Shown here: in pieces, positions 18,041 to 60,391 of the stretch
Numbering within the stretch: the first letter of the stretch is position 1
Layout of the letters: every line of letters starts with the position of its first letter
Source: Pseudomonadota bacterium
GTDB lineage: Bacteria > Pseudomonadota > Gammaproteobacteria > Burkholderiales > Rhodocyclaceae
Direction: 5' to 3'
Assembly: GCA_018241665.1 (NCBI GenBank)
Contig: JAFEDK010000003.1
Location: 1-64,000, forward strand
DNA: 64,000 bases
Translations under genes and position numbers: made by a program
Notes under the pieces: model-generated
Database searches by the model: none
Told to the model about the DNA's origin: nothing
Seen by the model: the letters and a program-made list of their open reading frames with translations, nothing else

Positions 18041-19015
18041 ATGCCAAGCTCCATGTCCGACCTGCACGCCGTGCTGGAGCCACCGGCCGCTGACTTCGCC
18101 GCCCGGGCAGAGGCCGCCTACCTGGGCCTTGCCCTGGGCGACGCGCTGGGCGCCACCGTCGAGTTCATGACGCCGCGGGAGATCCAGGCCCAGTACGGCT
18201 GCCACCGCACGATCCGTGGCGGCGGCTGGCTCAAGCTCAAATCCGGCGCGGTCACCGACGACACCACCATGGCGCTGGCCCTCGGCGACGCGATCCTGGC
18301 TGCCGGCGGCATCGACGCCCACACCATCGGCGAGGCCTTCGACGCCTGGATGCGCGCCAAGCCGGTGGACATCGGCAACACCGTGCGGCGCGGCATCATC
18401 GAATTCCGCCGCACCGGCCGGCTCGAAGCCCCGCCCAGCGAGCACGATGCCGGCAACGGCGCCTGCATGCGCGTGCTGCCGGTCACCCTGGCCACCCTCG
18501 GCCAGCCCGAGGACGCGGTGCGCACCGCCTGCCGCGTGCAGGCTCACCTGACCCACAACAATCCGCTTTCCGACGCCGGCACCGAGACCGTGACACTGAT
18601 GGTCCAGGACGCGCTGCGGGGTGCCGACCTCGACACGCTGGTTCGCCGGCGTGTGCGCCCCCTGCTCGACGCCTTCCCGCTCTTCGACCCCGCCGGCAAG
18701 CGCGAGGAAAACCCGTCCGGCTTCATCAAGGACACCCTGCGCGCGGTCTTCCAGGCCCTGCTCGACACCGACAGCTTCGAGACCTGCCTGATCGACGTGG
18801 TCAACCGCGGTGGCGACGCCGACACCACCGGCGCCATCGCCGGCATGCTGGCCGGCGCCCTGTACGGCCCCGCCAGCCTGCCCGAGCCCTGGCTGGCCGC
18901 CCTCGACCAGGATATTCGCCGCGCCTGCATGGCCCAGGCACGTGCTCTGCTATCCATCCCGTGGGGGCGAATTCATTCGCCCTCTGCGTGTGGCTCGACC
19001 GCCGCGGGCGAATGA
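18041..19015 (+). CDS. draG: DraG, ADP-ribosyl-[dinitrogenase reductase] hydrolase
   Basis: Removes ADP-ribose from nitrogenase Fe protein and so reactivates it after ammonium or dark switch-off. Family motifs are plain: GLALGDALGATVEFMTPREI, VTDDTTMALALGDAI, SEHDAGNGACMRVLP and VNRGGDADTTGAIAGMLAGALYG, which include the dimanganese ligands. The natural end in relatives lies near ARALLSI. After that this copy reads about 18 residues (starting PWGRIHSPSACG) encoded by a REPIN-like repeat, which also supplies the stop codon. The start is uncertain: GTG 18038, ATG 18041 or ATG 18053, none with a good ribosome site. The partner draT is not in the window. Confidence 0.93.
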   Translation: MPSSMSDLHAVLEPPAADFAARAEAAYLGLALGDALGATVEFMTPREIQAQYGCHRTIRGGGWLKLKSGAVTDDTTMALALGDAILAAGGIDAHTIGEAFDAWMRAKPVDIGNTVRRGIIEFRRTGRLEAPPSEHDAGNGACMRVLPVTLATLGQPEDAVRTACRVQAHLTHNNPLSDAGTETVTLMVQDALRGADLDTLVRRRVRPLLDAFPLFDPAGKREENPSGFIKDTLRAVFQALLDTDSFETCLIDVVNRGGDADTTGAIAGMLAGALYGPASLPEPWLAALDQDIRRACMAQARALLSIPWGRIHSPSACGSTAAGE

Positions 19016-19027
19016 ATTCGCCCCCAC
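18961..19027. repeat. REPIN-like double hairpin, copy A
   Basis: Two 22-nt arms in inverted orientation (18961-18982 and 19006-19027) around a 23-nt spacer. Each arm is itself a hairpin (GGGCGAAT-2 nt-ATTCGCCC) with a GTGGG/CCCAC outer tail. The draG stop (19013-19015) lies in the right arm. Confidence 0.92.
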
Positions 19028-19182
19028 AGAGTCCAGCCTCACAGAGCCCAGCCCCACAGGGGAATCGGACCTGCTTGCACCATCCTTCCCCAACGTCGCG
19101 GCCCCTACCAACTTGCAGCCCCCCCACCGATAAGCAGTAAAATCGCGGCCCGAAAGCCATCTGCGGGACCAACTACCCCGCC

Positions 19183-20796
19183 ATGACCGCCATGCTGCGA
19201 CTCTCCGAACTCCGCCTCCCCCTCGACCATCCGGAAGAGGCCCTGCCCGCCGCCATCATCCAGCGCCTGGGCATCTCCGCCGACCAGCTCGTCAGCTTCA
19301 AGGTTTTCAAGCGCAGCTACGACGCACGCAAGAACGTGCGCCTGTGCTTCATCTACATCATCGACCTGGAGGTGAAGAACGAGGCGGCGCTGCTGAAAAA
19401 ATTCGCCGACGACCTCCACGTCAAGCCGGCACCGGACACCGAGTACCACTTCATCGGCAAGGCGCCGCCCAATTTCACGCAGCGCCCAATCGTCATCGGC
19501 TTCGGCCCCTGCGGCATCTTCGCGGCGCTGATCCTGGCCCAGATGGGCTTCAAGCCGATCGTGCTGGAACGCGGCAAGGCCGTGCGCGAGCGCACCCAGG
19601 ACACCTGGGGCCTGTGGCGCAAGAACACCCTCAACCCGGAGTCGAACGTGCAGTTCGGCGAAGGCGGCGCCGGCACCTTCTCGGACGGCAAGCTGTACAG
19701 CCAGATCAAGGACCCGAAGCACTATGGCCGCAAGGTGCTCACCGAGTTCGTCAAGGCCGGCGCGCCGGAGGAGATCCTCTACGTCTCCAAGCCCCACATC
19801 GGCACCTTCCGGCTGGTCGGCATGGTGGAAGCCATGCGGGCCGAGATCACCGAGTTGGGCGGCGAGATCCGCTTCCAGCAGCGCGTCACCGACCTGATCG
19901 TCGAGGACGGCCAGGTGCGCGGCGTGCGCACCTCCACCGGTGACGAGCTGCGCAGCGACCACGTGGTGCTGGCCCTCGGCCACAGCGCCCGCGACACCTT
20001 CGAGATGCTCCACGAGCGGGGCGTCTTCATGGAGGCAAAATCCTTCTCGGTGGGCTTCCGCATCGAGCACCCCCAGTCGTTGATCGACAAGGCCCGCCTC
20101 GGCCCCCACGCCGGCCATCCGCTGCTCGGCGCCGCCGACTACAAGCTGGTGCACCACGCCTCCAACGGCCGCGCGGTGTACAGCTTCTGCATGTGCCCGG
20201 GCGGCACCGTGGTGGCCGCCACGTCGGAGCCCAACCGCGTCGTCACCAACGGCATGAGCCAGTATTCGCGCAACGAGCGCAATGCCAACGCCGGCATCGT
20301 GGTCAGCATCGACCCGAAGGACTACCCCGGCGGCCCGCTGGCCGGCATTGAATTCCAGCGCAAGCTGGAGAGCCATGCCTTCGTGCTCGGCGGCGGCACC
20401 TACGAAGCCCCGGCCCAGCTGGTCGGCGACTTCCTGCGCGGCAAGGCCTCCACCGCGCTGGGCGGCGTCGAGCCGTCCTACAAGCCTGGCGTGCATTTGT
20501 GCGATCTCGCCAGCGCGCTGCCCGACTACGCGATCACCGCGATGCGCGAGGCGATCCCGGCCTTCGACCGGCAGATCCGCGGCTTCAACATGTACGACGC
20601 GGTGCTCACCGGCGTCGAGACGCGCACCTCGTCGCCGCTGCGCATCACCCGTGGCGAGGACTTGCAGAGCCTCAACACCAAGGGCCTGTACCCGGCCGGC
20701 GAAGGCGCCGGCTACGCGGGCGGCATCCTGTCGGCCGGCGTGGACGGCATCAAGGTTGCCGAAGCCGTCGCCGCCAGCCTGCTCCAGCAGGGCTGA
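19183..20796 (+). CDS. FAD-dependent dehydrogenase (COG2509-type)
   Basis: A 537-residue soluble flavoprotein of the NAD(P)/FAD-dependent oxidoreductase family often labelled uncharacterised FAD-dependent dehydrogenase. An N-terminal region of about 90 residues precedes the dinucleotide-binding loop IVIGFGPCGIFAALILAQMG (about 104-123, GxGxxG-like). Further family patterns are FGEGGAGTFSDGKLYSQIKD and, near the end, LYPAGEGAGYAGGILSAGVDG, the second FAD contact. Substrate is unknown. The start could be ATG 19183 or 19192. It is probably its own unit: REPIN copy A separates it from draG and a GC hairpin follows. Confidence 0.85.
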   Translation: MTAMLRLSELRLPLDHPEEALPAAIIQRLGISADQLVSFKVFKRSYDARKNVRLCFIYIIDLEVKNEAALLKKFADDLHVKPAPDTEYHFIGKAPPNFTQRPIVIGFGPCGIFAALILAQMGFKPIVLERGKAVRERTQDTWGLWRKNTLNPESNVQFGEGGAGTFSDGKLYSQIKDPKHYGRKVLTEFVKAGAPEEILYVSKPHIGTFRLVGMVEAMRAEITELGGEIRFQQRVTDLIVEDGQVRGVRTSTGDELRSDHVVLALGHSARDTFEMLHERGVFMEAKSFSVGFRIEHPQSLIDKARLGPHAGHPLLGAADYKLVHHASNGRAVYSFCMCPGGTVVAATSEPNRVVTNGMSQYSRNERNANAGIVVSIDPKDYPGGPLAGIEFQRKLESHAFVLGGGTYEAPAQLVGDFLRGKASTALGGVEPSYKPGVHLCDLASALPDYAITAMREAIPAFDRQIRGFNMYDAVLTGVETRTSSPLRITRGEDLQSLNTKGLYPAGEGAGYAGGILSAGVDGIKVAEAVAASLLQQG

Positions 20797-20804
20797 AGCC
20801 GAAC

Positions 20805-20830
20805 GTGGCGGCGGCCCGCGCCGTCGCCAC
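20805..20830. terminator. Bidirectional GC hairpin between convergent genes
   Basis: GTGGCGGCGG pairs with CCGTCGCCAC (one G/T pair) around a 6-nt loop, placed between the convergent FAD oxidoreductase and porin stops. There is no T-run, so it is a weak intrinsic terminator at best. Confidence 0.45.
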
Positions 20831-20840
20831 GCGACACCGC

Positions 20841-22199
20841 TCAGAAGCGATAGCGACCACCGAGCATCAGCGACTTCGGCGTGAAGTTGGCCGGCAGGTT
20901 GGTGTCCCCGTCGAAGCCCTGACAGGTGCCGCCGGCGCACAGGGAGTTCTTGCCGCCGTTCTTGTTGCTGACCTGGGCGTAATACACGTACAGGTCGGTC
21001 TGCTTGTCGAGCGCGTACTCGTAGCCCAGGCCGTAGTGGTCCGAATCCCGGTCGGTGCTCATGCGGTCGTCCAGGTGGCTATACACCGCCCGGAAGGTAT
21101 GCACGTCGCGGAAAGGCACCGAAGCCCCCAGCCACCACACGCGGCGGTCGAGCTTCTTGCCGACACCGTCCTGCTTGTCCTCGCCGATCAGGTACTGGGC
21201 ATAGACCTTGGCCACCTTGAAGTCGTAGGTGGCGGCCAGGTTGCGCGCGGTGCGGCGGACGTCCTCCGTGGCCGGCGCGGTCACCGTGCCCTGGCGCAGG
21301 AAGTTCAGGTAGCCGGCGCCGACGAACAGATCGCCGTTCTTGTAGGTGAGCGTCGCGCTGCCGCCCTTGCCCTCGTCCTTCGGGCCGGTGCTGGTGGCGG
21401 AGCCGGTCACGCCGACATTGCTGCGGCTGTTGTTCTCCATCCCCGCCGAGTAGGCCACGTTGGCCTGGAAACCGCCAAACACCGGCGACGCGTAGAACAC
21501 GCCGTTGTCGAAGCGGCTGGCCGCCGCGCTGGACCACAGGCGGAAGGCCGTCGCCCCGCCGATGGTGAACGGATCCGAGGTGCTGGTGATCGAGTAGATC
21601 GGCGCGTAGTCGCGGCCGAAGCGGATATCGCCGTAGCGCCCACGCAGGCCGACGAAGGTGTTGCGCGAGAAGATCGCCACGCCGGTGGTGTTGGGTGCCG
21701 ACGAGGACGCCGCGCCCTGGCCCGGATTGCTGATGTTGCTGGAGTGGCCGGTGTTCTGCCCGTTGTCGAAGGAAATCCCCGCCTCGAGCTGGAAATAGGC
21801 CTGCAGGTCTTCGCCGAAGTTGCGCTCGCCCTTGAAGCCCAGCCGGCTGGCCGAGCCCAAGCCGCTCTGCACGCGAACCTTGTGCCCCTGGCCGTAATCC
21901 CCGTATTCGACGCCGGCATCCGCGATACCGTAGATCGTCAGCCCGGACGGCATCGACAACCCCTTCGAGGCCGGCGCCTGCGCAGCGGCGCTCTGCTCGA
22001 CCTTGGCCACCACCTTGGCGGTCTCGGCCTGCGCTGCGCTGGCGGCGGCCAGCTTCTTTTCCAGCTCCTCCAGGCGGCTGCGCTGGGCGGCCAGCTCGGC
22101 GCGCAGCTCGTCGGTGACATCGGCCATCGCGGGGGTGGCGGCAGCGGCAAGCGCCATCAGGCTGGCCGTCACGGCCAGGGACGCGGGAGTGTGTCTCAT
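20841..22199 (-). CDS. Gram-negative general porin with coiled-coil head
   Basis: Outer-membrane trimeric porin of the betaproteobacterial family, 452 aa. A signal peptide (1-26, ending PAMA) is followed by a predicted coiled coil (about 27-60, rich in Ala, Glu, Leu). The barrel opens with LTIYGIADAGVEYG and closes with the C-terminal Phe (MLGGRYRF) required for BAM-dependent insertion. One Cys pair (SLCAGGTCQG) is likely a disulphide in a late loop. A direct-repeat operator shared with the ABC operon lies 83-101 bp upstream, suggesting co-control by the TctD-like regulator and entry of the same solute. Confidence 0.9.
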   Translation of the reverse strand: MRHTPASLAVTASLMALAAAATPAMADVTDELRAELAAQRSRLEELEKKLAAASAAQAETAKVVAKVEQSAAAQAPASKGLSMPSGLTIYGIADAGVEYGDYGQGHKVRVQSGLGSASRLGFKGERNFGEDLQAYFQLEAGISFDNGQNTGHSSNISNPGQGAASSSAPNTTGVAIFSRNTFVGLRGRYGDIRFGRDYAPIYSITSTSDPFTIGGATAFRLWSSAAASRFDNGVFYASPVFGGFQANVAYSAGMENNSRSNVGVTGSATSTGPKDEGKGGSATLTYKNGDLFVGAGYLNFLRQGTVTAPATEDVRRTARNLAATYDFKVAKVYAQYLIGEDKQDGVGKKLDRRVWWLGASVPFRDVHTFRAVYSHLDDRMSTDRDSDHYGLGYEYALDKQTDLYVYYAQVSNKNGGKNSLCAGGTCQGFDGDTNLPANFTPKSLMLGGRYRF

Positions 22200-22281
22200 C
22201 TCTACCTTCCTTGTTTTATGTGTGGGTCGCCCGCCCCGGCCAACGGCCGGTTGCGGGCAGAACGGATTTCAGCCAAATCAG

Positions 22282-22300
22282 CTTTCGATCCGCTTTCGAT
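22282..22300 (+). promoter_or_regulatory. Predicted TctD-like operator at the porin gene
   Basis: CTTTCGATCCGCTTTCGAT: two copies of CTTTCGAT with starts 11 nt apart, as expected for two response-regulator DNA-binding domains on one DNA face. The same arrangement occurs at 27559 upstream of the ABC operon, in the same orientation relative to the minus-strand genes. Confidence 0.6.
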
Positions 22301-22314
22301 GAAGGTCAGGGGTG

Positions 22315-23376
22315 CTATCGGGGCAGCGCGGCGAAGCGCAGGAAGAAACCGCACACCTTCGGCGCGCAGACGGTGATCAGCACCACGCGCAGCACGTGGG
22401 TGGCGGTGATCAGCGGCACGCCCAGGTGCAACACCTTGGCGGTGACGCACATCTCGGCCATGCCACCGGGCGAGGCGGCCAGCAGCAACGACGGCAGGGA
22501 CACCGCGCCGCAAGCCGCCAGCGCGAGCACGAAGAGGCCCGACAGCAGCAGCGCCAGCAACGTGCTCGCCGCCGACACCGCCAGGAAACGCGGCGCGGCA
22601 CGGAAAAACTCCGGGGAGAAACGCCCGCCCAGGGCCACGCCGAGGAGCAGCTGGCCGCCGCCTACCAGCCAGCCCGGCAGCGCCGACAGCGGCACCTGCG
22701 CGGCGGTCAGCGCGGCGATGCAGGCCAGCGGCCCGAGCACCCAGGCATTGGCAATACGCAGGGCGCGGAACACCCCGACGCCCAGCAGCGAGGCCGCCAC
22801 CAGCAGGGGAAAGCGCCCCCACTCCACCGTCAGCAGGGCCGGCACGTAGCTGTCGTGTCCCTGTCCGCCCCAGTGGTAAAGGATGAAGGGCACCACCGAC
22901 ACCACCATCATCACGCGCAGCGCGTGGGCCGCCGCCACCCGGTCGGGCGCGCCACCCTGGCGCTCGGCCAGCACCACCATCTCGGACGCGCCGCCCGGCA
23001 GCCCGGCGAAGAAGGCGGTGGCCGGGCTGACGCCGGCCCAGCGGTGGATCAGCCACGCGCTGACCATCCCGATGCCCACCGCGCTGCCGGCCATCAGGCC
23101 GATCAACAGCAGGTTCTCGGCGAGATGGGCGAGGACCAGCGGTGTGAAGTACAGCCCCAGCGCCGTGCCGATGGCCCACTGGCCGGCCTGGCGGCCGCCG
23201 GGCGGACCCTCGATCATCCAGCCGGCAATGCGCGCCAGCGCCACGCTGAACAAGGGGCCGATCATCCACGGCAAGGGCACATGCAGCGCCTGGGCCAGCG
23301 CGCCGGCACAGGCGGCCAGCCCGAGGGCCGGCAGGACCCGGCCCCAGCGCAAAGTGAAACGAAAGTCGGGAGACAT
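22315..23376 (-). CDS. AbrB-family integral membrane protein
   Basis: A 353-residue membrane protein of the AbrB/COG3180 duplicated family (sometimes labelled putative ammonia monooxygenase; unrelated to the AbrB DNA-binding protein). About ten hydrophobic segments fall in two homologous halves. Each half has the family signature: PLPWMIGPLFSVALAR and AGLPGGASEMVVLAERQGG in the first, LLAASPGGMAEMCVTAKVL in the second. I take the ATG at 23376 (MSPDFRFTLRWG); the open frame extends 40 codons further but through the upstream terminator. Substrate is unknown; it lies between the porin and the ABC operon and may belong to the same uptake system. Confidence 0.85.
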   Translation of the reverse strand: MSPDFRFTLRWGRVLPALGLAACAGALAQALHVPLPWMIGPLFSVALARIAGWMIEGPPGGRQAGQWAIGTALGLYFTPLVLAHLAENLLLIGLMAGSAVGIGMVSAWLIHRWAGVSPATAFFAGLPGGASEMVVLAERQGGAPDRVAAAHALRVMMVVSVVPFILYHWGGQGHDSYVPALLTVEWGRFPLLVAASLLGVGVFRALRIANAWVLGPLACIAALTAAQVPLSALPGWLVGGGQLLLGVALGGRFSPEFFRAAPRFLAVSAASTLLALLLSGLFVLALAACGAVSLPSLLLAASPGGMAEMCVTAKVLHLGVPLITATHVLRVVLITVCAPKVCGFFLRFAALPR

Positions 23377-23433
23377 GCTGGGCAATCCACGCAAGGGAGC
23401 GGGACGGCAGCGACGCGCCCTGCCCGCTCCATG

Positions 23434-23479
23434 AAAAAAAGAAACCCCGCCACCTCCCGCTGGGGAAGCATGACGGGGT
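23434..23479 (-). terminator. Terminator after the ABC transporter operon
   Basis: On the minus strand ACCCCG (near 23479) pairs with CGGGGT (near 23444), enclosing a smaller CCC/GGG stem, and is followed by TTTCTTTTTTT. It separates the ABC operon from the AbrB-family gene. Confidence 0.75.
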
Positions 23480-23543
23480 GGAAAGCCCGGCGCCACGGGA
23501 CCACTGGCGCCGGAAACAGGGACGGTTCAGCGCATCGGCGGCG

Positions 23544-26283: not shown

Positions 26284-26355
26284 CGATGGGTTGGCGTGGA
26301 TCGGGACGCCGGCCGCGGCATCAGGCCGGGCCGGCGGCGGAACCGGGAGGCCCGC

Positions 26356-33707: not shown

Positions 33708-33773
33708 GTGGGGGCGAATTCATTCGCCCGCGGACCTTGATGAACCCACATGGGCGAATGAACTCGCCCCCAC
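33708..33773. repeat. REPIN-like double hairpin, copy B
   Basis: Arms at 33708-33729 and 33752-33773 in inverted orientation; the right arm has one change (GAACTCGCC for GAATTCGCC). It lies between cbiX and the methylmutase gene, inside the operon. The rest of the 233-nt gap (33674-33906) shows no gene. Confidence 0.92.
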
Positions 33774-34592: not shown

Positions 34593-35744
34593 ATGGCTGC
34601 AGGTCACACCCTCCCCGAGAAGGTCCGCAAAGGCGATCCGAAACGGGATCGCGGCAACCGCACGGGCTTCTCCACCGGCGCCAACTCCGCCGCCGCCGCC
34701 GCCGCCGCGACCCTCGGGCTGGTCCAGGGGCGCGTGCCGGAGGCGATCGAATGCGTGCTGCCCAACACTCAGCGGGTGCGCTTTTCCATCACCGACGGGT
34801 GGACCGACGGCCAGCATGCCCGCGCGGTCAGCATCAAGGATGCCGGCGACGACCCGGACGCCACCAACGGCGCCCACCTCACCGCCGAAGTCGAGCGCCT
34901 GCCCGGCGCCGCCGGCCAGATCGTGCTGCGCGGCGGCCCCGGCGTCGGCACTGTCACCAAGCCCGGCCTCGGGCTCGACGTGGGCGGGCCGGCGATCAAC
35001 CCGGTGCCCCGCCGCAACATCACCGACAACGTACGCGCCGCCGGCGCCCCCATCCTCGAAGCCGGCGACGGCATCGCGGTGACCATCTCGGTGCCCGGCG
35101 GCGAGGAGATGGCCAAGAAGACCCTCAACGCCCGCCTCGGCATCCTCGGCGGCATCTCCATCCTCGGCACCACCGGCATTGTGCGCCCGTACTCCACCGC
35201 AGCCTTCCGGGCCAGTGTGGTGCAGGCGGTGGACGTGGCCGCCAACCAGGGCCAGACCAGCGTGGTATTCACCACCGGTGGGCGCACCGAGAAATGCGCG
35301 ATGCGCTGCTTCCCGGAGCTGGACGAAGCCTGCTTCGTGCAGATGGGCGACTTCGTCAAGGCCGCCTTCCAGACCGCCGTCAAGCAGGGCATGCAGCACA
35401 TCATCGTCGGCGCAATGGTCGGCAAGCTCACCAAGATCGCCCAGGGCCTGTCCGTCACCCACGCCTGGCGCGAGGAGGTGGACCGGGAGCTGATCGCCTC
35501 GGCCGCTGCCGAGGTCGGCGCCCCGCCTGATCTGGTCGAGGAGATCCGCGCCGCCGAGACGGCCCGCTTCGCCGCCGAGCGGCTGGCCGAGCTGAACCTG
35601 ACCATCGCCTTCCATCGGGCCCTCGCCGAGCGCGCCATCCGCAGCCTGCGCGAACGCTACCCCGGCCCCCATCACCTCACCGTGCTCGCCTGCAATTTCG
35701 AAGGCGTGCCCATCGTCACCGTCGAAGAACATGAACTCGCCTGA
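34593..35744 (+). CDS. cbiD: CbiD, cobalt-precorrin-5B C1-methyltransferase
   Basis: C1-methylating enzyme specific to the anaerobic cobalamin route. The 383-residue product begins with RGNRTGFSTGANSAAAAAAA, the CbiD N-terminal pattern. GGPGVGTVTKPGLGLDVGGPAINPVPR (only the first part GGPGVGTVTKPGLGLDVGGP need be matched) and the central ILGTTGIVRPYSTAAFRAS follow. I take the ATG at 34593. It overlaps cbiET by 14 nt. Confidence 0.95.
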   Translation: MAAGHTLPEKVRKGDPKRDRGNRTGFSTGANSAAAAAAATLGLVQGRVPEAIECVLPNTQRVRFSITDGWTDGQHARAVSIKDAGDDPDATNGAHLTAEVERLPGAAGQIVLRGGPGVGTVTKPGLGLDVGGPAINPVPRRNITDNVRAAGAPILEAGDGIAVTISVPGGEEMAKKTLNARLGILGGISILGTTGIVRPYSTAAFRASVVQAVDVAANQGQTSVVFTTGGRTEKCAMRCFPELDEACFVQMGDFVKAAFQTAVKQGMQHIIVGAMVGKLTKIAQGLSVTHAWREEVDRELIASAAAEVGAPPDLVEEIRAAETARFAAERLAELNLTIAFHRALAERAIRSLRERYPGPHHLTVLACNFEGVPIVTVEEHELA

Positions 35745-37122
35745 ACTGTGCCGCATCGTCGGCATCCTCGATGACGGCTGGTTCGGCCTGGGCGACCCGG
35801 CCCGCACCACCCTCATCGAATCCGATCTCCTCATCGGCGCCCGCCGCACGCTGGATCTCGTGGCCCCCTACCTCCCTCCCAGGGTGGAACTGCGAGATAT
35901 GGACGGCCAACTCGGCCGTGTCCCGGAATGGGTCCGTGCGGCGCGCGGCGCCGGCCACACCAGCACCGTGCTGGCCACCGGCGATCCCCTGTGCCACGGC
36001 ATCGCCAGCTTCCTGGCCGGCAAGCTCGGCACGGATGCCATCGCGGTGCTCCCCGCCGTGTCCACGCTGCAACTGGCCTTCGCCCGCTTCAAGAAATGCT
36101 GGCAAGCCGCCGCCATCGCCTCGGTGCACAGCCGCGACGCTGGCGAATGGCAGATCGGCGCAACGCCCGAGCACGGCCTCTACCCGCTCGTCCGCGCGGC
36201 CTCCCGGCACGCGCTGATCGGTGCCTTCACCAGCCCGGACAACAACCCGGCGCGCATTGCCCGGGCGCTGATCACCGCCGGCCACAAGGACGATTTCCGC
36301 CTGTCGGTCGCCGCCCGCCTGTGCCTGCCGGACGAGGCCCTGTTTGCCGACCTGCCGCTGGGCGACGCCGCCGGCATGGACTTCCCCGATCCGAACATCG
36401 TCGTGCTGGAGCGCATCACGCCGCCCGACAGCCGCGCCACCTTCGGCTTCGACGACGCCGACTTCGTACAGCGCGCCCCCGAGAAAGGCCTCATCACCAA
36501 GCAGGAAGCCCGCGCCCTGTCTCTCGCCAAGCTGGGCCTGCGCCCCGACAGCCGGGTGTGGGACATCGGCGCCGGCTCCGGCTCGGTGGGTCTCGAAGCC
36601 GCCCGCCTGGCTTACGACGGCCACGTGTGGGCCATCGAGAAGAACCCCGGCGACGCCGACAACGCCCGCGAGAACGCCCGCCGCCTGAAGGCCAGCAACT
36701 ACACGCTGATGGAAGGCAAGGCACCGGCCGGGCTGGATCAATGGCCCGATCCGGACGCCGTCTTCATCGGCGGCTCCGGCGGCGAACTGGCCGAGCTGAT
36801 CCGCCTGGTCCTCGCCCGCCTGCGCCCGCACGGACGCCTGGTGATGAACTTCGTGACGCTGGAGAACCTGGCCACCGCCACCGCCGCACTTACCGAAGCC
36901 GGCGCTACGTGGGATGTGGTCCAGCTGCAGGCCGCCCGCAGCCAGCCCATCCTCGACATGCACCGTCTCGCCGCGCAGAACCCGGTGTGGATCGTCTCGG
37001 CCAGTGGGGGCGAATTCATTCGCCCACGGACTTTGGTCAACGCACAAAGGGCGAATGAATTCGCCCCCACTCAGACACCGCCCTCGGAAATCACGTCCCA
37101 ACAGCAAGGAGCCGCCCAATGA
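35731..37122 (+). CDS. cobL: CbiET fusion, precorrin-6Y methyltransferase/decarboxylase
   Basis: Bifunctional enzyme: CbiE domain (about 1-210) methylates C5, and CbiT domain (about 235-420) methylates C15 and decarboxylates. CbiE shows ATGDPLCHGIASFLAGKLG and LPAVSTLQLAFARF; CbiT shows LGLRPDSRVWDIGAGSGSVG, the SAM loop. The last 40 residues are abnormal: after NPVWIVSA the sequence GGEFIRPRTLVNAQRANEFA is encoded by REPIN copy C read in-frame, followed by about 17 unrelated residues. The enzyme core is complete. Its stop overlaps the next ATG (ATGA, 37119). Confidence 0.95.
   Translation: MNSPELCRIVGILDDGWFGLGDPARTTLIESDLLIGARRTLDLVAPYLPPRVELRDMDGQLGRVPEWVRAARGAGHTSTVLATGDPLCHGIASFLAGKLGTDAIAVLPAVSTLQLAFARFKKCWQAAAIASVHSRDAGEWQIGATPEHGLYPLVRAASRHALIGAFTSPDNNPARIARALITAGHKDDFRLSVAARLCLPDEALFADLPLGDAAGMDFPDPNIVVLERITPPDSRATFGFDDADFVQRAPEKGLITKQEARALSLAKLGLRPDSRVWDIGAGSGSVGLEAARLAYDGHVWAIEKNPGDADNARENARRLKASNYTLMEGKAPAGLDQWPDPDAVFIGGSGGELAELIRLVLARLRPHGRLVMNFVTLENLATATAALTEAGATWDVVQLQAARSQPILDMHRLAAQNPVWIVSASGGEFIRPRTLVNAQRANEFAPTQTPPSEITSQQQGAAQ
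37004..37070. repeat. REPIN-like double hairpin, copy C, within cbiET
   Basis: Arms at 37004-37025 and 37049-37070 in inverted orientation. The whole element is inside the cbiET reading frame with no stop and adds 22 residues to the C-terminus. Confidence 0.93.
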
Positions 37123-37959: not shown

Positions 37960-38026
37960 GTGGGGGCGAATTCATTCGCCCATCGCGGGTTGCATCACCA
38001 CCGCAGGCGAATGAATTCGCCCCCAC
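37960..38026. repeat. REPIN-like double hairpin, copy D
   Basis: Left arm 37960-37981; right arm 38005-38026 with its first base changed (AGGCGAAT). It fills most of the 185-nt gap between cobI and cbiG; nothing else is visible there. Confidence 0.9.
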
Positions 38027-51925: not shown

Positions 51926-51949
51926 TCAGGTTTTCTCCGGTAGCAAGAA

Positions 51950-52061: not shown

Positions 52062-52081
52062 GTAACAGCTGGCAACAAGAA

Positions 52082-53260: not shown

Positions 53261-53289
53261 GCGTAACCCTCGGGATGGGAAATACAAAC

Positions 53290-54168: not shown

Positions 54169-54197
54169 GAGCTAGTGCTGGAGAGGGAAAGTTGAGT

Positions 54198-54203
54198 ATT
54201 GTA
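54198..54203 (-). promoter_or_regulatory. -10 element of dapA-bamC
   Basis: On the minus strand TACAAT lies 30 nt upstream of the dapA ATG. The -35 region is weak (CTATGC). Confidence 0.4.
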
Positions 54204-54294
54204 CCCAATCACTTCGCGAAGCATAGACGGGTGCAAACAGCGGTTACCAAAAGGCCGACGCGAGCGTGACGAAGTCACGCCGGGCATGAAACGA

Positions 54295-54315
54295 AAACCC
54301 GCCGCAGCGGGTTTG
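54295..54315 (-). terminator. Terminator after the deacetylase-family gene
   Basis: On the minus strand AAACCCGC-TGCG-GCGGGTTTT, an 8-bp stem ending in T. It lies 22 nt past the stop at 54337. Confidence 0.8.
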
Positions 54316-54336
54316 CGCCGGAATTTTGGCGATCAA

Positions 54337-55263
54337 TTACAGGTCGGCCAGCGCCTTGACGTGCGCCACCACGCTGCGAGCCAGGGACGACAGCGAATAA
54401 CCGCCTTCCAGCAGGGACACGATGCGGCGCCCGGCACATTCGGCAGCCACGGTCTTGAGCTGCTCGGTGGCCCACACGTAATCGGCCTCGACCAGGCCCA
54501 TGGAGCCCATGTCGTCCTCGTAGTGGGCGTCGAAGCCGGCCGAGATGAAGATCATCTCCGGCGCGTGATTGCGCAGCGCCGGCATCCAGATATTGGTGAC
54601 GACCTCGCGGAAGACGTCACCCCGGCTGCCCGCCTTCATCGGCACATTGACCATGTTGGGAGCTGGGTTGTCGGCGCCGCTGTACGGGTAGAACGGGTGC
54701 TGGAAGATGCTGACCATCAGCACGCGGGGATCGTCGCGGAAGATGTCTTCCGTGCCGTTGCCGTGATGCACGTCGAAATCCACCACAGCAACCCGCTTCA
54801 GCCCGTGCGCCTCCAGCGCATGTCGGGCCGCCACCGCCACATTATTGAAAAAGCAGAAGCCCATCGCCTTGCCGGCCTCGGCATGGTGGCCGGGCGGGCG
54901 GATTGCGCAGAACGCGTTCTCGGCCTGCCCGGAAATCACCAGGTCGGTGGCGTAAACACCGGCCCCCGCCGAGCGCAGCGCCGCCTTCATGGAATTGGGA
55001 CACAGGGCCGTGTCCGGATCCAGATGGCGGATGCCATGCTCCGGCACGCTGGCCAGGAGCTCCTCGACGTGCTCCCGGGGATGTGCCCGGGAAAGCTGCT
55101 CAATGGTCGCCTGCGGCGCGTCATGAAAGGCCAGATACATATCGAGGCCCGCAGCAATCAGACGGTCGTTTATCGCACCGAGACGCTCCGGGGACTCCGG
55201 GTGATGCTCACCCATGTTATGCAACCAGCAATCCCGGTGCGTGATGAATGCGGTACTCGTCAT
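54337..55263 (-). CDS. Histone-deacetylase-fold (class II) protein
   Basis: A 308-residue zinc hydrolase of the HDAC/acetoin-utilisation/polyamine amidohydrolase superfamily. Active-site pattern is intact: CAIRPPGHHAEAGKAMGFCF (the two catalytic His), VVDFDVHHGNGTEDIF (zinc Asp and His) and ISAGFDAHYEDDMGSM (second zinc Asp). The Tyr is in LLEGGYSLSSLA. Substrate in bacteria is unknown; likely a small acylated amine. It is followed by its own terminator and divergent from moxR. Confidence 0.92.
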   Translation of the reverse strand: MTSTAFITHRDCWLHNMGEHHPESPERLGAINDRLIAAGLDMYLAFHDAPQATIEQLSRAHPREHVEELLASVPEHGIRHLDPDTALCPNSMKAALRSAGAGVYATDLVISGQAENAFCAIRPPGHHAEAGKAMGFCFFNNVAVAARHALEAHGLKRVAVVDFDVHHGNGTEDIFRDDPRVLMVSIFQHPFYPYSGADNPAPNMVNVPMKAGSRGDVFREVVTNIWMPALRNHAPEMIFISAGFDAHYEDDMGSMGLVEADYVWATEQLKTVAAECAGRRIVSLLEGGYSLSSLARSVVAHVKALADL

Positions 55264-55440
55264 AGACTCTCCCCTGCCTCTCGCAGTGTCTTGTTATACG
55301 TCGTGAATGCTTGCACTCCCCGGCGTACGCCTTGTCCGGCGCGAACTCCTCGACCTTGTACTGGTCATTGGAGCACGACGCCGAGAGCGCTGTTATGGAA
55401 TCATTATCCCCTTAACTACAGCCTGAAAAAAGCCCGCGCC

Positions 55441-56361
55441 ATGCCGCAGCAGATTGCCAACCGACTTGCCGAAGCCACATGCCGGATCATTCTCGGCAAG
55501 GAGCGCGCCGTCCGTCTCGCCCTTGCCTGCGTGCTGGCCCGCGGCCACCTGCTGATCGAAGACATTCCGGGGGTCGGCAAGACGACCCTCGCCCACGTGC
55601 TCGCCCGGGTGCTGGGCCTGCAGTTCCAGCGCATCCAGTTCACCAGCGACATGCTGCCCGCCGACATCGTCGGCGTATCGGTATTCGACCAGCGGGAAGG
55701 CGCCTTCCGCTTCCACCCAGGGCCGGTGTTCTCCCAGTTGGTCCTGGCCGACGAGATCAACCGGGCCACGCCCAAGGCCCAGAGTGCACTGCTCGAAGCC
55801 ATGGAGGAGCGCCAGATCAGCGCGGAAGGCCGCACCTGGCCGCTGCCCGAGCCCTTCTTCGTTATCGCCACCCAGAACCCGGCCGAGCAGATCGGCACCT
55901 TCGCCCTGCCGGAAAGCCAGCTGGACCGTTTCCTGATGCGCATCTCGATGGGCTATCCGGACCCCGCCGCGGAACGCGCCCTGCTCGCCGGCGAAGACCG
56001 GCGCGAGATGCTGGCGCGGGTGCAACCCGAGCTGCAGCCCGGCGAGCTCGACAGCCTGTTCGCCGCGGTACGCCAGGTCCACGCCGGCCCGCGCCTGCTC
56101 GATTACCTGCAAGCCCTGCTCGCCCACAGCCGCCAGGGCGCCGGCTTCGCGCTGGGGCTGTCGCCGCGGGGTGGACTGGCCCTGCTGGCGGCGGCTCGGG
56201 CCTGGGCCTTGCTGGCCGGCCGCGACCACGTACAGCCCGAGGATGTGCAGGCCGTCCTGCCAGCCGTCGCCGGCCACCGCCTGCGGGCCGCCGACGACGC
56301 CCCATTGACTGCGGATCAACTGGCACGGCGCCTGATTGAAGCCGTAGCCCTGCCGGGATGA
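55441..56361 (+). CDS. MoxR-family AAA+ ATPase
   Basis: A 306-residue chaperone-like ATPase. Walker A is IPGVGKTT (42-49), Walker B LVLADEINRATPKAQSAL, sensor 1 FFVIATQNPAE, and the Arg finger near RFLMRISMGYPD. MoxR proteins help mature cofactor- or metal-dependent complexes together with DUF58 and VWA proteins. The following two genes complete that classic trio with a transglutaminase protein. The frame is open far upstream, but the ATG at 55441 starts the domain directly. The DUF58 ATG overlaps its stop. Confidence 0.92.
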   Translation: MPQQIANRLAEATCRIILGKERAVRLALACVLARGHLLIEDIPGVGKTTLAHVLARVLGLQFQRIQFTSDMLPADIVGVSVFDQREGAFRFHPGPVFSQLVLADEINRATPKAQSALLEAMEERQISAEGRTWPLPEPFFVIATQNPAEQIGTFALPESQLDRFLMRISMGYPDPAAERALLAGEDRREMLARVQPELQPGELDSLFAAVRQVHAGPRLLDYLQALLAHSRQGAGFALGLSPRGGLALLAAARAWALLAGRDHVQPEDVQAVLPAVAGHRLRAADDAPLTADQLARRLIEAVALPG

Positions 56362-57335
56362 GTTTCACCCGCTTGCGCACCGCCTTCCAGCGCTGGCTGT
56401 TCCGCGTCAAGGGGCCCGAGGTGGCTCCGATCACGCTGGGCCAGCGACGCATCTTCGTGCTGCCGACCGCCTTCGGGCTCGCCCTTGGCGCAACCCTGGC
56501 GGTAATGCTGCTGGCGTCGATCAACTACACCCTGAGCCTGGGCTACGCACTGAGCTTCCTGATCGGCGGCGTCGCCTGGGTGAGCATTCACCACGCCTTT
56601 CGCAACCTGGTCGATCTGAGCATCGAACCCGGCCGGGTCGAGCCGGTCTTCTGCGGCGCCCCGCTCCACTTCGGAATCGTCCTGGACAACCCTGAAGGGC
56701 GCACCCGCACGGGACTCCAACTGCGACCGACACACGCAGGAAGACCAGTAGGAGAAGAGCTTTTCGATCTCCCGGCCACAGGGCGGGCCCGGCAGGACGT
56801 CGCCATTGCCACCACGGTGCGCGGCTGGCTCCAGCTCCCCCGCCTGACCCTCGAAACCCACCACCCCCTCGGCCTGATCCGTGCCTGGAGCCTGTTCCAG
56901 CCCGACATGCGCGGCCTGGTCTACCCGACGCCGGAAAGCCACGCGCCCGCCCTCCCCCACGGCACAGACGACCACCCCGGCGGCAGCACGCGCGGCCACG
57001 GCACCGACGACTTCGCCGGCCTGCGCCATCACCAGCCGGCAGACTCCCCGCGCCATGTGGCCTGGAAGGCTGTGGCCCGGGGTGGCCCCTGGCGCACCAA
57101 GACCTTCGACGGCGGCCAACGCGGCAGCATCTGGCTGGACTGGCAAGCCCTGCCCGCGGGCCTGGACACCGAAGCCCGCCTGTCGCGCTTGACCAGCTGG
57201 ATCATCGACGCGGAGCGGAGCGGCCTCGACTATGGTCTGCGCATTCCCGGCACCCAGCTTCAATGCGCCCATGGCACAGCGCACCGGCATGCCTGTCTCA
57301 GCGCCCTCGCGCTATACGGTCGCCCCCATGGCTGA
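56358..57335 (+). CDS. DUF58 membrane protein
   Basis: A 325-residue protein with two N-terminal hydrophobic segments (about 34-55 and 60-78) and a DUF58 region (vWA-like) carrying DFAGLRHHQPADSPRHVAWK, the family signature near 215-235. Partner of the MoxR ATPase. Overlaps MoxR by 4 nt and the transglutaminase gene by 8 nt. Confidence 0.9.
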   Translation: MSFTRLRTAFQRWLFRVKGPEVAPITLGQRRIFVLPTAFGLALGATLAVMLLASINYTLSLGYALSFLIGGVAWVSIHHAFRNLVDLSIEPGRVEPVFCGAPLHFGIVLDNPEGRTRTGLQLRPTHAGRPVGEELFDLPATGRARQDVAIATTVRGWLQLPRLTLETHHPLGLIRAWSLFQPDMRGLVYPTPESHAPALPHGTDDHPGGSTRGHGTDDFAGLRHHQPADSPRHVAWKAVARGGPWRTKTFDGGQRGSIWLDWQALPAGLDTEARLSRLTSWIIDAERSGLDYGLRIPGTQLQCAHGTAHRHACLSALALYGRPHG

Positions 57336-59271
57336 ACCCGGCCTGCGCCCCGATCAGGCAGGCTGGCTGATCGCCTGCGCTGTCATCAGCCTGGCCCCCC
57401 ACGGTCAGCACCTGCCCCCGGCGATCACTGCGGTCTGCATATTGCTGCTGCTGTGGCGGACGGCCATCAGCCTCGACAAGGGGCACCTGCCCCATCGCCT
57501 CCTGCTGATCGGCGTGGCAGCCTGCGTGGTCGGGCTGGTTCTGCTGGAATACCACCAGTTCTTCGGCAAGGATCCAGGCATCGCGGTCCTCGCCGGACTG
57601 CTGAGTCTCAAATTGCTGGAAACGGACAGCCGCCGCGACGGCCGGGCGGTGCTGCTGCTGTGCTTCTTCATGCAGACCGGCCTGTTCCTGTACCAGCAGA
57701 GCATGCTGGTCGCTGCCCTCGCCCTGCTCGGCACAACGGTGGCCATCGGCAGCCTGCTGGCACTGCAAGGACGGTCCGCGGCCCCGAAGGCGCGCCTCAC
57801 CGCGGCCGCAAGGCTGGTGCTGCAGGGCGTTCCGCTGATGCTCGTGCTGTTCGTCCTCTTTCCCCGTGTTCAAGGCCCCCTGTGGGGTCTGCCGGCCGAT
57901 GCCTACAACCGGGTTAGCGGGCTGTCGGACAGCATGACGCCCGGCGACATGGCACGCCTCAGCGAATCCAGCGACATTGCCTTCCGGGCCGCCTTCGCCG
58001 GCGAACTGCCGCCCCCCGCCGAGCGCTACTGGCGCGGCCCGGTCCTCAGCCGTTTCGACGGGCGCAGCTGGCGTACCGCGCGCAGCAGCACGAGCCCGCG
58101 GCCGGCTTACGCCCCCCAGGGCGTCGCCTACCCCTACACGCTCACCCTCGAACCCCACAACCAGCGCTGGCTGCTGGCGCTCGACTTCCCCGCTGAGGCC
58201 CCCGGCCTGCGCTACGGCAGCGATTTCCAGCTGATGTCGGGCGATCCGGTACGTAGCCGGCTGCGGCTGTCCCTGCTCTCCTATCCTCACACGCCGGTCG
58301 GCATCGATGCCAGCCCGCGGGAGCTCCGCGAGGCCCTGGCCCTGCCCTCCGGCAGCAATCCCCGTACCCAGGCGCTCGGCGCCCGCATCCGGCAGGAAGC
58401 CCGCGACGCCGACGATGCGCTGCAGCGGGTCATCGCCGACTTCCGTCACCGCAGCCTGAGCTACACCCTCGACCCCCAGCCCTTGGGCCGGGAGGATGCG
58501 GACAGCTTCCTGTTCGATACGAAGCAGGGTTTCTGCGAGCACTTCGCCTCTGCCTTCGTCATTGCCATGCGTGCAGCGGGGGTTCCGGCGCGGGTCGTCA
58601 CCGGCTATCAGGGCGGGGAATTCAACCCGGTGGACGGGACGCTGGTGATCCGTCAGTCGGACGCCCATGCCTGGGCTGAAGTCTGGCTGGCCGGACGCGG
58701 CTGGACGCGCGTCGACCCGACCGCCGCGAGCGCCCCGCGGCGCATCGATGGCGGACTTGCCGCCGCCCTGCCCGACAGCGACCGCCTGCCGCTGCTGGCC
58801 CGCAGCTCCCTTGCCTGGTTGCGGGAGCTGCGCAATCAGCTGGACGCCCTAGACAACCGCTGGAACCAATGGGTTCTCGGGTACAATCCGGCCCGCCAGA
58901 AAGCCCTGCTCGCCGACTTTGGCGTGGTGGATGCCGACTGGCAGACGATTACCGCGCTGATGGCCGGCGCCTGCACCCTCGTCATGGCGGCCCTGACCGC
59001 ATGGGTATTGCGACGTCGCCTGTCGGCCGACGCCCTTGATCGCAGCTGGTCTCTTTTCTGTCGCCGACTCGCTTCCGCGGGACTACCTCGCGCTGCCTGG
59101 GAAGGCCCGCAGGACTATGCCGAGCGTGTCGCCAGCCAGCGGCCCGACCTCGCCGACACCGTGAAGCGCATCGCCACCGACTATGCCCGCCTGCGTTACG
59201 GGCGCACCGGCATCGAGCGAGCCGCCCTCCAAAGCCTGAAGCACTCCATCAAGAATTTCCGTCCCCGATGA
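57328..59271 (+). CDS. TgpA-like membrane transglutaminase-family protein
   Basis: A 647-residue protein with an N-terminal block of six to seven TM segments (about 12-170), a TgpA_N domain, a periplasmic transglutaminase-like domain and a last TM near 575. The catalytic triad is visible: Cys in TKQGFCEHFASAFVIAMRAA, His in SDAHAWAEVWLAG and Asp in TRVDPTAAS. Such proteins are essential in Pseudomonas (TgpA), with a cell-envelope role. The start could be ATG 57271, adding 19 residues. It overlaps mltB by 4 nt. Confidence 0.9.
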   Translation: MAEPGLRPDQAGWLIACAVISLAPHGQHLPPAITAVCILLLLWRTAISLDKGHLPHRLLLIGVAACVVGLVLLEYHQFFGKDPGIAVLAGLLSLKLLETDSRRDGRAVLLLCFFMQTGLFLYQQSMLVAALALLGTTVAIGSLLALQGRSAAPKARLTAAARLVLQGVPLMLVLFVLFPRVQGPLWGLPADAYNRVSGLSDSMTPGDMARLSESSDIAFRAAFAGELPPPAERYWRGPVLSRFDGRSWRTARSSTSPRPAYAPQGVAYPYTLTLEPHNQRWLLALDFPAEAPGLRYGSDFQLMSGDPVRSRLRLSLLSYPHTPVGIDASPRELREALALPSGSNPRTQALGARIRQEARDADDALQRVIADFRHRSLSYTLDPQPLGREDADSFLFDTKQGFCEHFASAFVIAMRAAGVPARVVTGYQGGEFNPVDGTLVIRQSDAHAWAEVWLAGRGWTRVDPTAASAPRRIDGGLAAALPDSDRLPLLARSSLAWLRELRNQLDALDNRWNQWVLGYNPARQKALLADFGVVDADWQTITALMAGACTLVMAALTAWVLRRRLSADALDRSWSLFCRRLASAGLPRAAWEGPQDYAERVASQRPDLADTVKRIATDYARLRYGRTGIERAALQSLKHSIKNFRPR

Positions 59272-60299
59272 AAAACGCCTCCTTCCGTCGCTCTCTGACG
59301 CTGGCCCTTCTCACTTCCTGCCTCGGCGCCCCCACCATGGCCCATGCCACGGAACGCTATGCCGACCGCCCGGAAACCCAGCAGTTCATCGCCGAAATGC
59401 AGCAACGCCACGGCTTCGACAAGGACGCACTGACCTACATCTTCCGCCGCGCCCAGTATCTGCCATCGGTGATCAAGGCCATCTCCCCACCGAAGGACCC
59501 CGGCGTGCGATCCTGGCAGCGCTACCGCGGCCGCTTCATCGAACCCGTGCGCATCAAGGCCGGCGTGGCCTTCTGGGAGCGCTACCAGGACACCATCAAG
59601 GCGGCGAGCGAGAAGTACGGCGTGCCGGAGGAGATCATCGTCGGCATCATCGGCGTGGAGACCATCTACGGTCGCAACACCGGCAACTACCAGGCGGTGT
59701 CGGCCCTGTCCACCCTGGCCTTCGACTACCCGCGACGAGCCGAGCTATTCCGCGGCGAACTGGAAAACCTGCTGCTGATGGCGCGGGAACAGCACCGCGA
59801 CCCGCTCGACTACCAGGGCTCCTACGCCGGCGCACTGGGTCTGCCCCAGTTCCTGCCGAGCAGCGTGCGCAACTACGCGGTGGACTTCGACGGCGATGGC
59901 CAGATCGACCTGCTCAACAGCCCCAAGGACGCCATCGGCAGCGTCGCCCGCTACATGCAGATGCACGGCTGGGAGAGTGACGCACCGGTTGCCGTGCGCG
60001 CCAGCGTGACGCCGGGCGCCGACCTCACCGCACTGATCGCCAACGACGTTGATCCCGCCTTCGATCCGGCAACGCTCGCCAGCCGCGGCGTCAAGGCTGC
60101 CAGCGGCGAGATGCCCGCCAACAAAGCCGCCTTCATCGAACTGGTTACGCCCGGCGAAGACAGCGAATACTGGCTCGGCTACCAGAACTTCTACGTGATC
60201 ACCCGCTACAACCGCAGCAGCTTCTACGCCATGTCTGTGTTCCAGCTGGGCGAAGCCGTCAAGGCCGCCCGCCAGACGGCCCTTGCCAACCGGCGTTGA
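59268..60299 (+). CDS. mltB: Lytic murein transglycosylase B
   Basis: Cleaves peptidoglycan glycan strands to 1,6-anhydromuropeptides. The 343-residue product has a lipoprotein-like signal with LLTSC (Cys18). The catalytic Glu is in IIGVETIYGRNTGNYQAVSA; the family PQFLPSSVRNYAVDFDGDGQ segment follows, with EF-hand-like Asp residues. It is translationally coupled to the transglutaminase gene (ATGA), suggesting a joint envelope function. Confidence 0.95.
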   Translation: MKNASFRRSLTLALLTSCLGAPTMAHATERYADRPETQQFIAEMQQRHGFDKDALTYIFRRAQYLPSVIKAISPPKDPGVRSWQRYRGRFIEPVRIKAGVAFWERYQDTIKAASEKYGVPEEIIVGIIGVETIYGRNTGNYQAVSALSTLAFDYPRRAELFRGELENLLLMAREQHRDPLDYQGSYAGALGLPQFLPSSVRNYAVDFDGDGQIDLLNSPKDAIGSVARYMQMHGWESDAPVAVRASVTPGADLTALIANDVDPAFDPATLASRGVKAASGEMPANKAAFIELVTPGEDSEYWLGYQNFYVITRYNRSSFYAMSVFQLGEAVKAARQTALANRR

Positions 60300-60324
60300 G
60301 ACCGGCTGCAGCCCACTACTGATC

Positions 60325-60391
60325 GTAGGGGCGAATTCATTCGCCCAAGGACTAGATTCAACCGACTGAGGGCGAATGAATTCGCCCCTAC
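60325..60391. repeat. REPIN-like double hairpin, copy E
   Basis: Arms at 60325-60346 and 60370-60391, with GTAGGGG/CCCCTAC outer tails instead of GTGGGGG. It sits between the convergent mltB and ArsC-like stops. Confidence 0.92.

What the first reader, a model, noticed from the sequence alone, without database searches (positions are those of the whole stretch)
18961..60391. Five copies of a 66-67 bp REPIN-like double hairpin
Copies at 18961-19027, 33708-33773, 37004-37070, 37960-38026 and 60325-60391 share the same layout. Two 22-nt arms are inverted around a 22-23 nt spacer, and each arm is itself a hairpin GGGCGAAT-NN-ATTCGCCC with a GTGGG or GTAGG outer tail. The spacers of copies B, C and E also agree (GGAC-TT/GG-CAAC pattern), so the unit spreads as a whole. 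The arms resemble from memory REP sequences of Pseudomonas-type genomes, which are mobilised by RAYT transposases; none is in this window. Three copies lie within 4.3 kb of the cobalamin operon.
Basis: partly seen in the sequence, partly recalled or inferred. Interest (0 to 1): 0.75.

Follow-up and report, generated by a model that had tools for sequence, protein, structure and literature searches.

The report
REPIN repeats whose spacers flip
The five repeats belong to a genome-wide family of short mobile DNA (REPINs) with one matching transposase gene elsewhere in the genome, and comparison with a sister species shows that the middle segment of such a repeat is sometimes turned around in place, for which I found no earlier report.

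Summary
In detail: ten arms in five inverted pairs. They belong to a REPIN population: 222 exact pairs in a 5.43-Mb genome, with one REP-associated tyrosine transposase (RAYT) gene lying between REPINs. The genus is Zoogloea by inference. Sites A, B, D and E are empty in three close relatives; C is occupied in one.

The surprise lies at 29 sites occupied both here and in relative G016: the spacer is direct at 15, inverted between standing arms at 8, unclear at 6. Four of the eight have both flanks collinear within 20 nt. Without requiring exact arms, 15 shared sites (11 of them the same) give 6 direct, 4 inverted, 5 unclear.

The likeliest cause is polymerase template switching between the 22-nt arms, reported in yeast to invert spacers and homogenise arms (PMC8604942, passages). 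RAYT-driven flipping is not excluded; a Pseudomonas replicate was inconclusive. New member of a known kind; I found no report of in-place spacer inversion in REPINs.

The parts
18961..19027 (.). REPIN copy A: arms 18961-18982 and 19006-19027, spacer 18983-19005 (23 nt)
   Evidence: folds as one hairpin; no pair at this site in G016, G021, G020 or G019
33708..33773 (.). REPIN copy B: arms 33708-33729 and 33752-33773, spacer 33730-33751 (22 nt), between the CbiX and CbiC genes
   Evidence: no pair in G016, G021 or G020, while in G019 a REPIN with different arms lies there
37004..37070 (.). REPIN copy C: arms 37004-37025 and 37049-37070, spacer 37026-37048 (23 nt), in frame inside the 3' end of the ORF 35731-37122
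   Evidence: also present in G020 with the spacer direct and 7 of 23 bases different; no pair in G016, G021 or G019
37960..38026 (.). REPIN copy D: arms 37960-37981 and 38005-38026, spacer 37982-38004 (23 nt), between a TP_methylase gene and the CbiG gene
   Evidence: no pair in G016, G021, G020 or G019
60325..60391 (.). REPIN copy E (GTAGG tails): arms 60325-60346 and 60370-60391, spacer 60347-60369 (23 nt), between convergent SLT_2 and ArsC genes
   Evidence: no pair in G016, G021, G020 or G019
18038..19015 (+). ADP-ribosylglycohydrolase ORF whose last codons and stop are supplied by REPIN copy A
   Evidence: PF03747, E 9.7e-62
35731..37122 (+). tetrapyrrole methylase plus methyltransferase ORF (CbiE/CbiT-like, name recalled) that reads through REPIN copy C, giving a REPIN-coded C-terminal stretch
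   Evidence: PF00590 and PF13847

Best explanation
The five units are members of a REPIN population of a Zoogloea genome: pairs of GTRG-tailed palindromic REPs in inverted orientation around a spacer of about 23 nt. They are most likely spread by the single RAYT gene on another contig (shown: the gene exists and lies between REPINs of the same family; inferred: that it moves them). After insertion a copy is inherited in place, and during replication the polymerase now and then switches template between its two 22-nt arms. Shown: at sites shared by two species the spacer lies inverted in 8 of 23 classifiable cases, with outside flanks unmoved where they can be followed closely. Inferred: that polymerase template switching does this, and that the same process copies one arm from the other and so helps keep the two arms alike.
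For: 222 exact pairs in the genome, 0 for the pattern read backwards. One RAYT in the genome: PF01797 and NF047646 REP_Tyr_transpos, E 1.4e-43, 148 bits against a cut-off of 80, with REPINs on both sides; His-x-His and the tyrosine are invariant in six sequences of the genus, own included. Presence/absence: 23 of 38 mapped G000 pairs have no pair in G016. Inversion: of 29 shared sites 8 inverted, 15 direct, 6 unclear, threshold the 99% level (13) of 812 non-orthologous comparisons, whose maximum is 17; 6 of the 8 inverted exceed 17, L100 equals it and L127 (14) lies below. L103/L169 is an exact 23/23 reverse complement. Four of the eight have both flanks collinear within 20 nt (letters). Without requiring exact arms: 4 inverted, 6 direct, 5 unclear of 15; its ten classified sites are all among those. 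Third genomes: two decayed G021 copies are inverted against G016 (scores 13 and 15). Arm homogenisation: at L116/L160 both arms carry the same A/C difference with the spacer unchanged; within G000 same-base deviations outside the tail base occur in both arms 4 times against 0.54 with shuffled partners (p 0.0036). Template switching between inverted repeats is reported to cause both outcomes in yeast (PMC8604942, passages).
Against: No transposition was seen, only presence/absence. G016 has no RAYT hit yet has 36 exact pairs. The arm-concordance evidence is thin: 4 events, and subfamilies could mimic it; the tail base varies across the family, so its paired changes (5 in 72, p 0.027) may be independent. 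6 of 29 shared sites have unrelated or weakly related spacers, and the 4 sites that adds are unclear too, which neither inversion nor point mutation explains. Of four third-genome comparisons scored, the two with G020 are direct (15 and 9). G000 and G016 are drafts (55 and about 730 contigs) and no reads were examined. A scan of other sequence found no comparable inversions but was not matched for arm length. The Pseudomonas test gave no support: 1 of 17 comparisons rose above the null, and it was direct; four comparisons at three sites leaned inverted (21-23) within the null.
Confidence: 0.82

Rival explanations
1. The in-place flips are made by the RAYT: it excises the single-stranded unit and rejoins it in the opposite sense, or strand-transfers between the two arms.
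For: RAYT-class enzymes cut and join REP single strands in vitro (PMC8266576, passages); the units carry GTRG tails and the genome has a RAYT.
Against: G016, G020 and G021 have no RAYT hit, although flips could predate its loss. The estimated flip number, about 0.6 per element against about 0.06 substitutions per spacer base (my arithmetic), seems low enough to need no enzyme (judgement).
Confidence: 0.17
2. A dedicated site-specific recombinase inverts the spacer as a phase switch.
For: Inversion between inverted repeats in place.
Against: The invertible segment is about 23 nt and differs at half its positions between copies, and over 200 copies would all be switches. Neither recombinase genes nor promoters were searched for.
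Confidence: 0.03
3. The inversions are assembly artefacts of short-read drafts around a repeat present over 200 times.
For: Both genomes are drafts; the arms are nearly identical across the genome.
Against: The unit is 67 bp, shorter than usual reads (general knowledge), and the flanks are specific to the site. Two decayed copies in a third genome, G021, are also inverted against G016.
Confidence: 0.07
4. Spacers are exchanged by ectopic recombination between REPINs, and the inverted cases are conversions from a similar copy elsewhere.
For: 6 of 29 shared sites carry unrelated or weakly related spacers.
Against: For 7 of 8 inverted sites the partner at the site scores higher than every other spacer in a pool of 98 sampled G000 spacers; at L105:16080 another spacer ties. 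The pool is a part of the genome's copies, so a donor outside it is possible.
Confidence: 0.06

Closest known systems
REPINs of Pseudomonas fluorescens SBW25 (Bertels and Rainey 2011, PMC3116915, passages seen)
   Same: Inverted REP doublets, conserved ends with a less conserved spacer, predicted hairpin, high copy number, a RAYT proposed to act in trans, some tandem arrays.
   Different: Shorter unit (67 bp), nearly self-complementary arms (GGGCGAAT-TC-ATTCGCCC), a Zoogloea host, and in-place spacer inversion between species. The word 'inversion' does not occur in that paper's main text.
GTAG-tagged REP dimers (PMC3733652, passages seen)
   Same: GTAG or GTGG tail, mostly 6-9 bp stems, dimers with spacers mostly of 20-100 bp, some RAYT genes flanked by the repeats.
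   Different: Spacer inversion at shared sites: the word 'inversion' has 0 occurrences in the main text.
Template-switch spacer inversion at short inverted repeats in yeast (PMC8604942, abstract and passages seen)
   Same: Spacer inversion between perfect arms and homogenisation of arms.
   Different: There the inversions reported lie in coding sequence and amount to 2-5 bp substitutions; here the spacers are about 23 nt in a mobile bacterial repeat family.
BIMEs of Escherichia coli (PMC8266576 and PMC3686654, passages seen)
   Same: REP doublets in inverse orientation, with a TnpA-REP.
   Different: E. coli REPs are imperfect palindromes of three types in mosaics, often in tandem; these arms are nearly identical, and the tandem arrays I noticed were at a few places such as the RAYT region.

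Membership tests
REPIN | Two REPs in inverted orientation forming one unit that can fold as a hairpin | tested here: met
   222 exact pairs
REPIN | GTRG tetranucleotide 5' of each palindrome | tested here: met
   144 paired arms: G at position 1 in 142, T at 2 in 139, G or A at 3 in 138, G at 4 in 141
REPIN | Arms much more conserved than the spacer | tested here: met
   0.5 of 18 against 11.6 of 23 mean pairwise differences
REPIN | Pairs predominate over single REPs | tested here: met
   72 pairs and 15 unpaired arms (sample fetched around listed arms plus the window); 46 pairs and 16 singles in blocks chosen around shared sites
REPIN | Extragenic location | tested here: inconclusive
   3 of 5 window copies lie between genes; A overlaps a stop codon and C lies in frame in an ORF; not tested genome-wide
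REPIN | Cognate RAYT gene in the genome, flanked by the same REPs | tested here: met
REPIN | Mobilised by that RAYT | not testable with these tools
   Presence/absence between species only
RAYT (REP-associated tyrosine transposase) | HUH motif and catalytic tyrosine in a Y1 transposase | tested here: met
   NF047646 148 bits against a cut-off of 80, PF01797 over its cut-off; His61, His63 and Tyr121 invariant in 6 sequences, their roles recalled; no fold or activity tested
Template-switch inversion hot spot | Spacer inverted between unchanged arms with flanks in place | tested here: met
   8 of 29 sites; 4 of the 8 with both flanks collinear within 20 nt
Template-switch inversion hot spot | Arms homogenised with each other | tested here: inconclusive
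   one clear double change and a small excess
Template-switch inversion hot spot | Independent of any transposase | not testable with these tools
   Needs a RAYT deletion
MITE of a DDE transposase | Target-site duplication at empty sites | tested here: inconclusive
   Four occupied/empty site comparisons show no clean junction

The most novel reading that the evidence does not exclude
REPINs are invertible elements: their RAYT, besides rare transposition, flips the spacer of resident copies in place as a regular side reaction, so that orientation at a site is a living record of RAYT activity, and arms and spacer evolve by different processes.
Probability: 0.17. Interest if true: 0.8.

Novelty: new member of a known kind. 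Interest (0 to 1): 0.5.

Why it matters
The REPIN-RAYT population in Zoogloea is ordinary in kind. In-place inversion matters because the conservation of REPIN arms is read as a sign of selection through transposition (PMC3116915, passages). If template switching also copies one arm from the other, part of that conservation is mutational, and spacer orientation becomes a countable record of fork switching at defined 22-nt inverted repeats in wild bacteria. It can be tested directly with a cloned unit. It also warns against using spacer orientation to trace REPIN copies.

Tried and rejected
Pseudomonas replicate (20 REPINs of DTU12.3, G040, against two related genomes): 17 comparisons had a pair in both; only one exceeded the 99% null level, in direct orientation. 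Four comparisons at three sites leaned inverted (scores 21-23) but lie within the null (99% level 25.4). The spacers there are semi-palindromic and mostly too different to align. Not evidence either way.

Hypermutable spacers were considered because the spacer at site C differs from G020 at 7 of 23 bases, all transitions. Rejected as a general reading: at the 15 direct G016 sites the mean is 0.93 differences per spacer, near what the flanks show.

A general small-inversion process was looked for in six pairwise alignments of four genomes (416 kb summed): one marginal 10-nt event. The scan skips gapped windows, did not report the one REPIN inversion known in that region (which has a 3-nt indel), and was not matched for arm length, so it only suggests that REPINs are special.

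A shared REP sequence in distant RAYT hosts was looked for: the 18-nt arm occurs in 3 of 80 RAYT loci and never as an exact pair. The 80 are the best of 531 confirmed stretches of a capped list.

The first arm count counted the shadow of each near-palindromic arm on the other strand and was replaced. Nulls for spacer scores were made from the same sites, so they are not independent. The 38 G016 pairs followed are the 36 exact pairs plus two with one arm mismatch (L113:1568, direct; L127, inverted); the exact-arm choice biases the G016 arms towards perfection. Of the 38, 29 had a pair in G000, 2 had only a half unit (one beside a run of N), and 7 had no homologous region in the sample. One search drops the exact-arm condition; 11 of its 15 shared sites are among the 29, including all ten that it classifies, and the four it adds are unclear (one scores 13 direct). 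The union is therefore 33 sites: 15 direct, 8 inverted, 10 unclear.
Full report
Observation. The window holds ten matches to GGGCGAATNNATTCGCCC (up to 3 mismatches), all in the five claimed pairs, against 0.58 expected from shuffles. Each unit has 22-nt arms with GTGGG or GTAGG tails and a spacer of 22 or 23 nt. As single-stranded DNA each unit folds into one long stem with the spacer as loop, z-scores -7.35 to -10.21, and in each case 0 of 200 shuffles did as well.

Genome-wide. The window lies on contig C33 of a 5.43-Mb, 55-contig genome. The exact pair of 18-nt arms with a 15-30 nt spacer occurs 222 times (the pattern is its own reverse complement, so 222 forward and 222 reverse are the same units), and 0 times read backwards. 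A 19-nt arm pattern occurs 633 times (301 forward, 332 reverse). In 335 kb, made up of the window and 17 stretches fetched around listed arms, I found 159 arms (up to 5 mismatches in 22): 72 pairs and 15 unpaired arms; the spacer was 23 nt in 60 of the 72. In seven blocks (477 kb of G000) chosen around known shared sites, the window's contig among them, there were 46 pairs and 16 singles.

The transposase. One Y1 transposase gene was found in the genome (it is also the only G000 hit). It passes the NCBIfam cut-off for REP-associated tyrosine transposase (E 1.4e-43), and REPINs lie on both sides of it. The surrounding 14 kb is rich in copies, with arrays of 113-116 bp period. Six sequences of the genus, own included, keep the His-x-His and tyrosine positions. 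Relatives of the protein occur in Stutzerimonas, Pseudomonas, Thiobaca, Methylococcaceae and others (the best 80 of 531 confirmed stretches of a capped list), but the arm sequence does not follow them (3 of 80 loci, no exact pair).

Host. Two pieces of a G019 locus (same genus as the window's genome) are contained in contig JAOAUC010000083.1, titled Zoogloea oleivorans, of the same length as G019:C83, 20,552 bases. The genus Zoogloea (Betaproteobacteria) is therefore inferred.

Distribution. Exact pairs were sought in 40 genomes, own included: 6 have them, all in the genus: 222 in G000, 36 in G016, 3 in G019, 2 in G020, 1 each in G008 and G015. G016, G020 and G021 have no RAYT hit by two queries. 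A sister family with arms GGGCGACTTCAGTCGCCC was sought in five genomes of the genus: 19 exact pairs in G019, 8 in G013, 2 in G022, none in G018 and G003.

Presence/absence. Sites A, B, D and E have no pair in G016, G021 and G020; site C is occupied in G020 and not in the other two; in G019 only site B holds a pair, with different arms. In the syntenic blocks 38 of 46 G000 pairs could be mapped onto G016: 23 without and 15 with a pair there. Four occupied/empty comparisons show no clean target duplication.

Spacer inversion. I followed 38 G016 pairs into G000 by their flanks: the 36 exact pairs and two with one arm mismatch. 29 sites have a pair in both genomes; 2 have only a half unit in G000; 7 had no homologous region in my sample. 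Scoring each spacer directly and as reverse complement, with the 99% level (13) of 812 non-orthologous comparisons as threshold, 15 are direct, 8 inverted and 6 unclear; the null's maximum is 17, which 6 of the 8 inverted and 14 of the 15 direct exceed. L103/L169 is an exact 23/23 reverse complement. Four inverted sites (L103, L122, L124, L082) and 13 direct sites have both flanks collinear to within 20 nt of the G016 unit (gaps listed; letters of the inverted sites). The orthologous spacer is best or tied best in a pool of 98 sampled G000 spacers at all 23 classified sites, tied at two. Spacer differences average 0.93 at direct and 2.12 at inverted sites. One search, without the exact-arm condition, has 15 shared sites: 6 direct, 4 inverted, 5 unclear, and 5, 3 and 2 with both flanks within 20 nt on the G000 side; its ten classified sites are all among the 23 above, so it is a check on the choice of sites and not a replicate. 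The union is 33 sites: 15 direct, 8 inverted, 10 unclear. In third genomes I scored four pairs: two decayed G021 copies are inverted against G016 (13 and 15) and two G020 copies are direct against G000 (15 and 9); a few further occupied sites were not scored. Treated as a two-state process, 8 of 23 means about 0.6 flips per element on the path between the two genomes, against about 0.06 substitutions per spacer base; this is my arithmetic, and the threshold biases the substitution figure downwards.

Mechanism. Two traces fit polymerase template switching between inverted repeats. First, spacer inversion with flanks in place. Second, arm homogenisation: at L116/L160 both arms show the same A/C difference while the spacer is unchanged; within G000, same-base deviations outside the tail base occur in both arms 4 times against 0.54 for shuffled partners, p 0.0036, and at the tail base 5 times against 1.96, p 0.027. 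This second trace is suggestive only: 35 of 72 pairs have identical arms and most deviations are in one arm. PMC8604942 (start of abstract, passages) describes both outcomes for yeast and refers to template switching in bacteria. At L120/L171 a unit corresponds to one palindromic arm in G000. A scan for other small inversions found one marginal event. A RAYT-driven flip is not excluded.

Unexplained. At six of the 29 sites both genomes carry a pair with different or only weakly similar spacers. Independent insertion at the same spot, replacement or conversion are possible; I could not choose.

Replication elsewhere. In Pseudomonas (100 forward matches of a REPIN pattern in DTU12.3) 20 sites were followed into two relatives; 17 comparisons had a pair in both, one exceeded the null, direct. 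Generality is untested.

Literature. Searches: REPIN and RAYT (all 18 listed), inversion with REP or template-switching terms (none, 20 of 60 listed, one, nine), REPIN with orientation terms (10 of 697 listed), Zoogloea with REP sequences (none). I saw no report of REPIN spacer inversion in these listings. The word 'inversion' is absent from the main texts of PMC3116915, PMC8049555, PMC3733652, PMC3686654 and PMC8266576 (passages seen, none read whole). Only open-licence papers are held, so this is a limited statement.

Genes. Copies B, C and D lie in a cobalamin gene cluster (CbiX, CbiC, tetrapyrrole methylases, CbiG). C lies in frame in the 3' end of an ORF and A supplies the end of another, so a flip at such a site would change a protein tail; whether these tails matter was not tested.

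Verdict. The finding is right and ordinary in kind, in a genus where my one search found no earlier report. The in-place inversion is the part worth following.

Noticed in passing
window 35731-37122 and 18038-19015: REPIN copies C and A supply coding sequence for protein C-terminal ends (for C a stretch reading GGEFIRP...ANEFAP); read by eye, the two arms are open in 5 of 6 forward frames, so REPINs can add tails to proteins.
   Followed up: partly
L007 (G000:C3:128500-142716): The RAYT neighbourhood is rich in REPINs, with arrays of 113-116 bp period in which neighbouring spacers are alike.
   Followed up: partly
L006 around 1930-1990: Upstream of the RAYT start a short unit ending in the REPIN tail (GCATCAGCCCCCACA type) is repeated several times in tandem.
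   Followed up: no
G019, G013 and G022: A sister REPIN family with arms GGGCGACTTCAGTCGCCC, in G019 with spacers near GCCTTTTCGTTGATCAACCACCGAT, in genomes with their own RAYT hits.
   Followed up: partly
L171 compared with L120: A complete REPIN in G016 corresponds to a single fully palindromic arm in G000, as if the spacer and one arm were deleted.
   Followed up: no
L286 compared with L294 (Pseudomonas): At one shared site both arms differ in the same way between species (GGGC to GAGC) while the spacer stays alike, which hints at concerted change of the arms.
   Followed up: no
L112:1022 compared with L016: At one shared site with a direct spacer the two tails are swapped (GTA...CAC in G016, GTG...TAC in G000).
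   Followed up: no
L142 (G000:C17, near 130.8 kb): A run of N interrupts a REPIN site, so one half unit could not be read.
   Followed up: no
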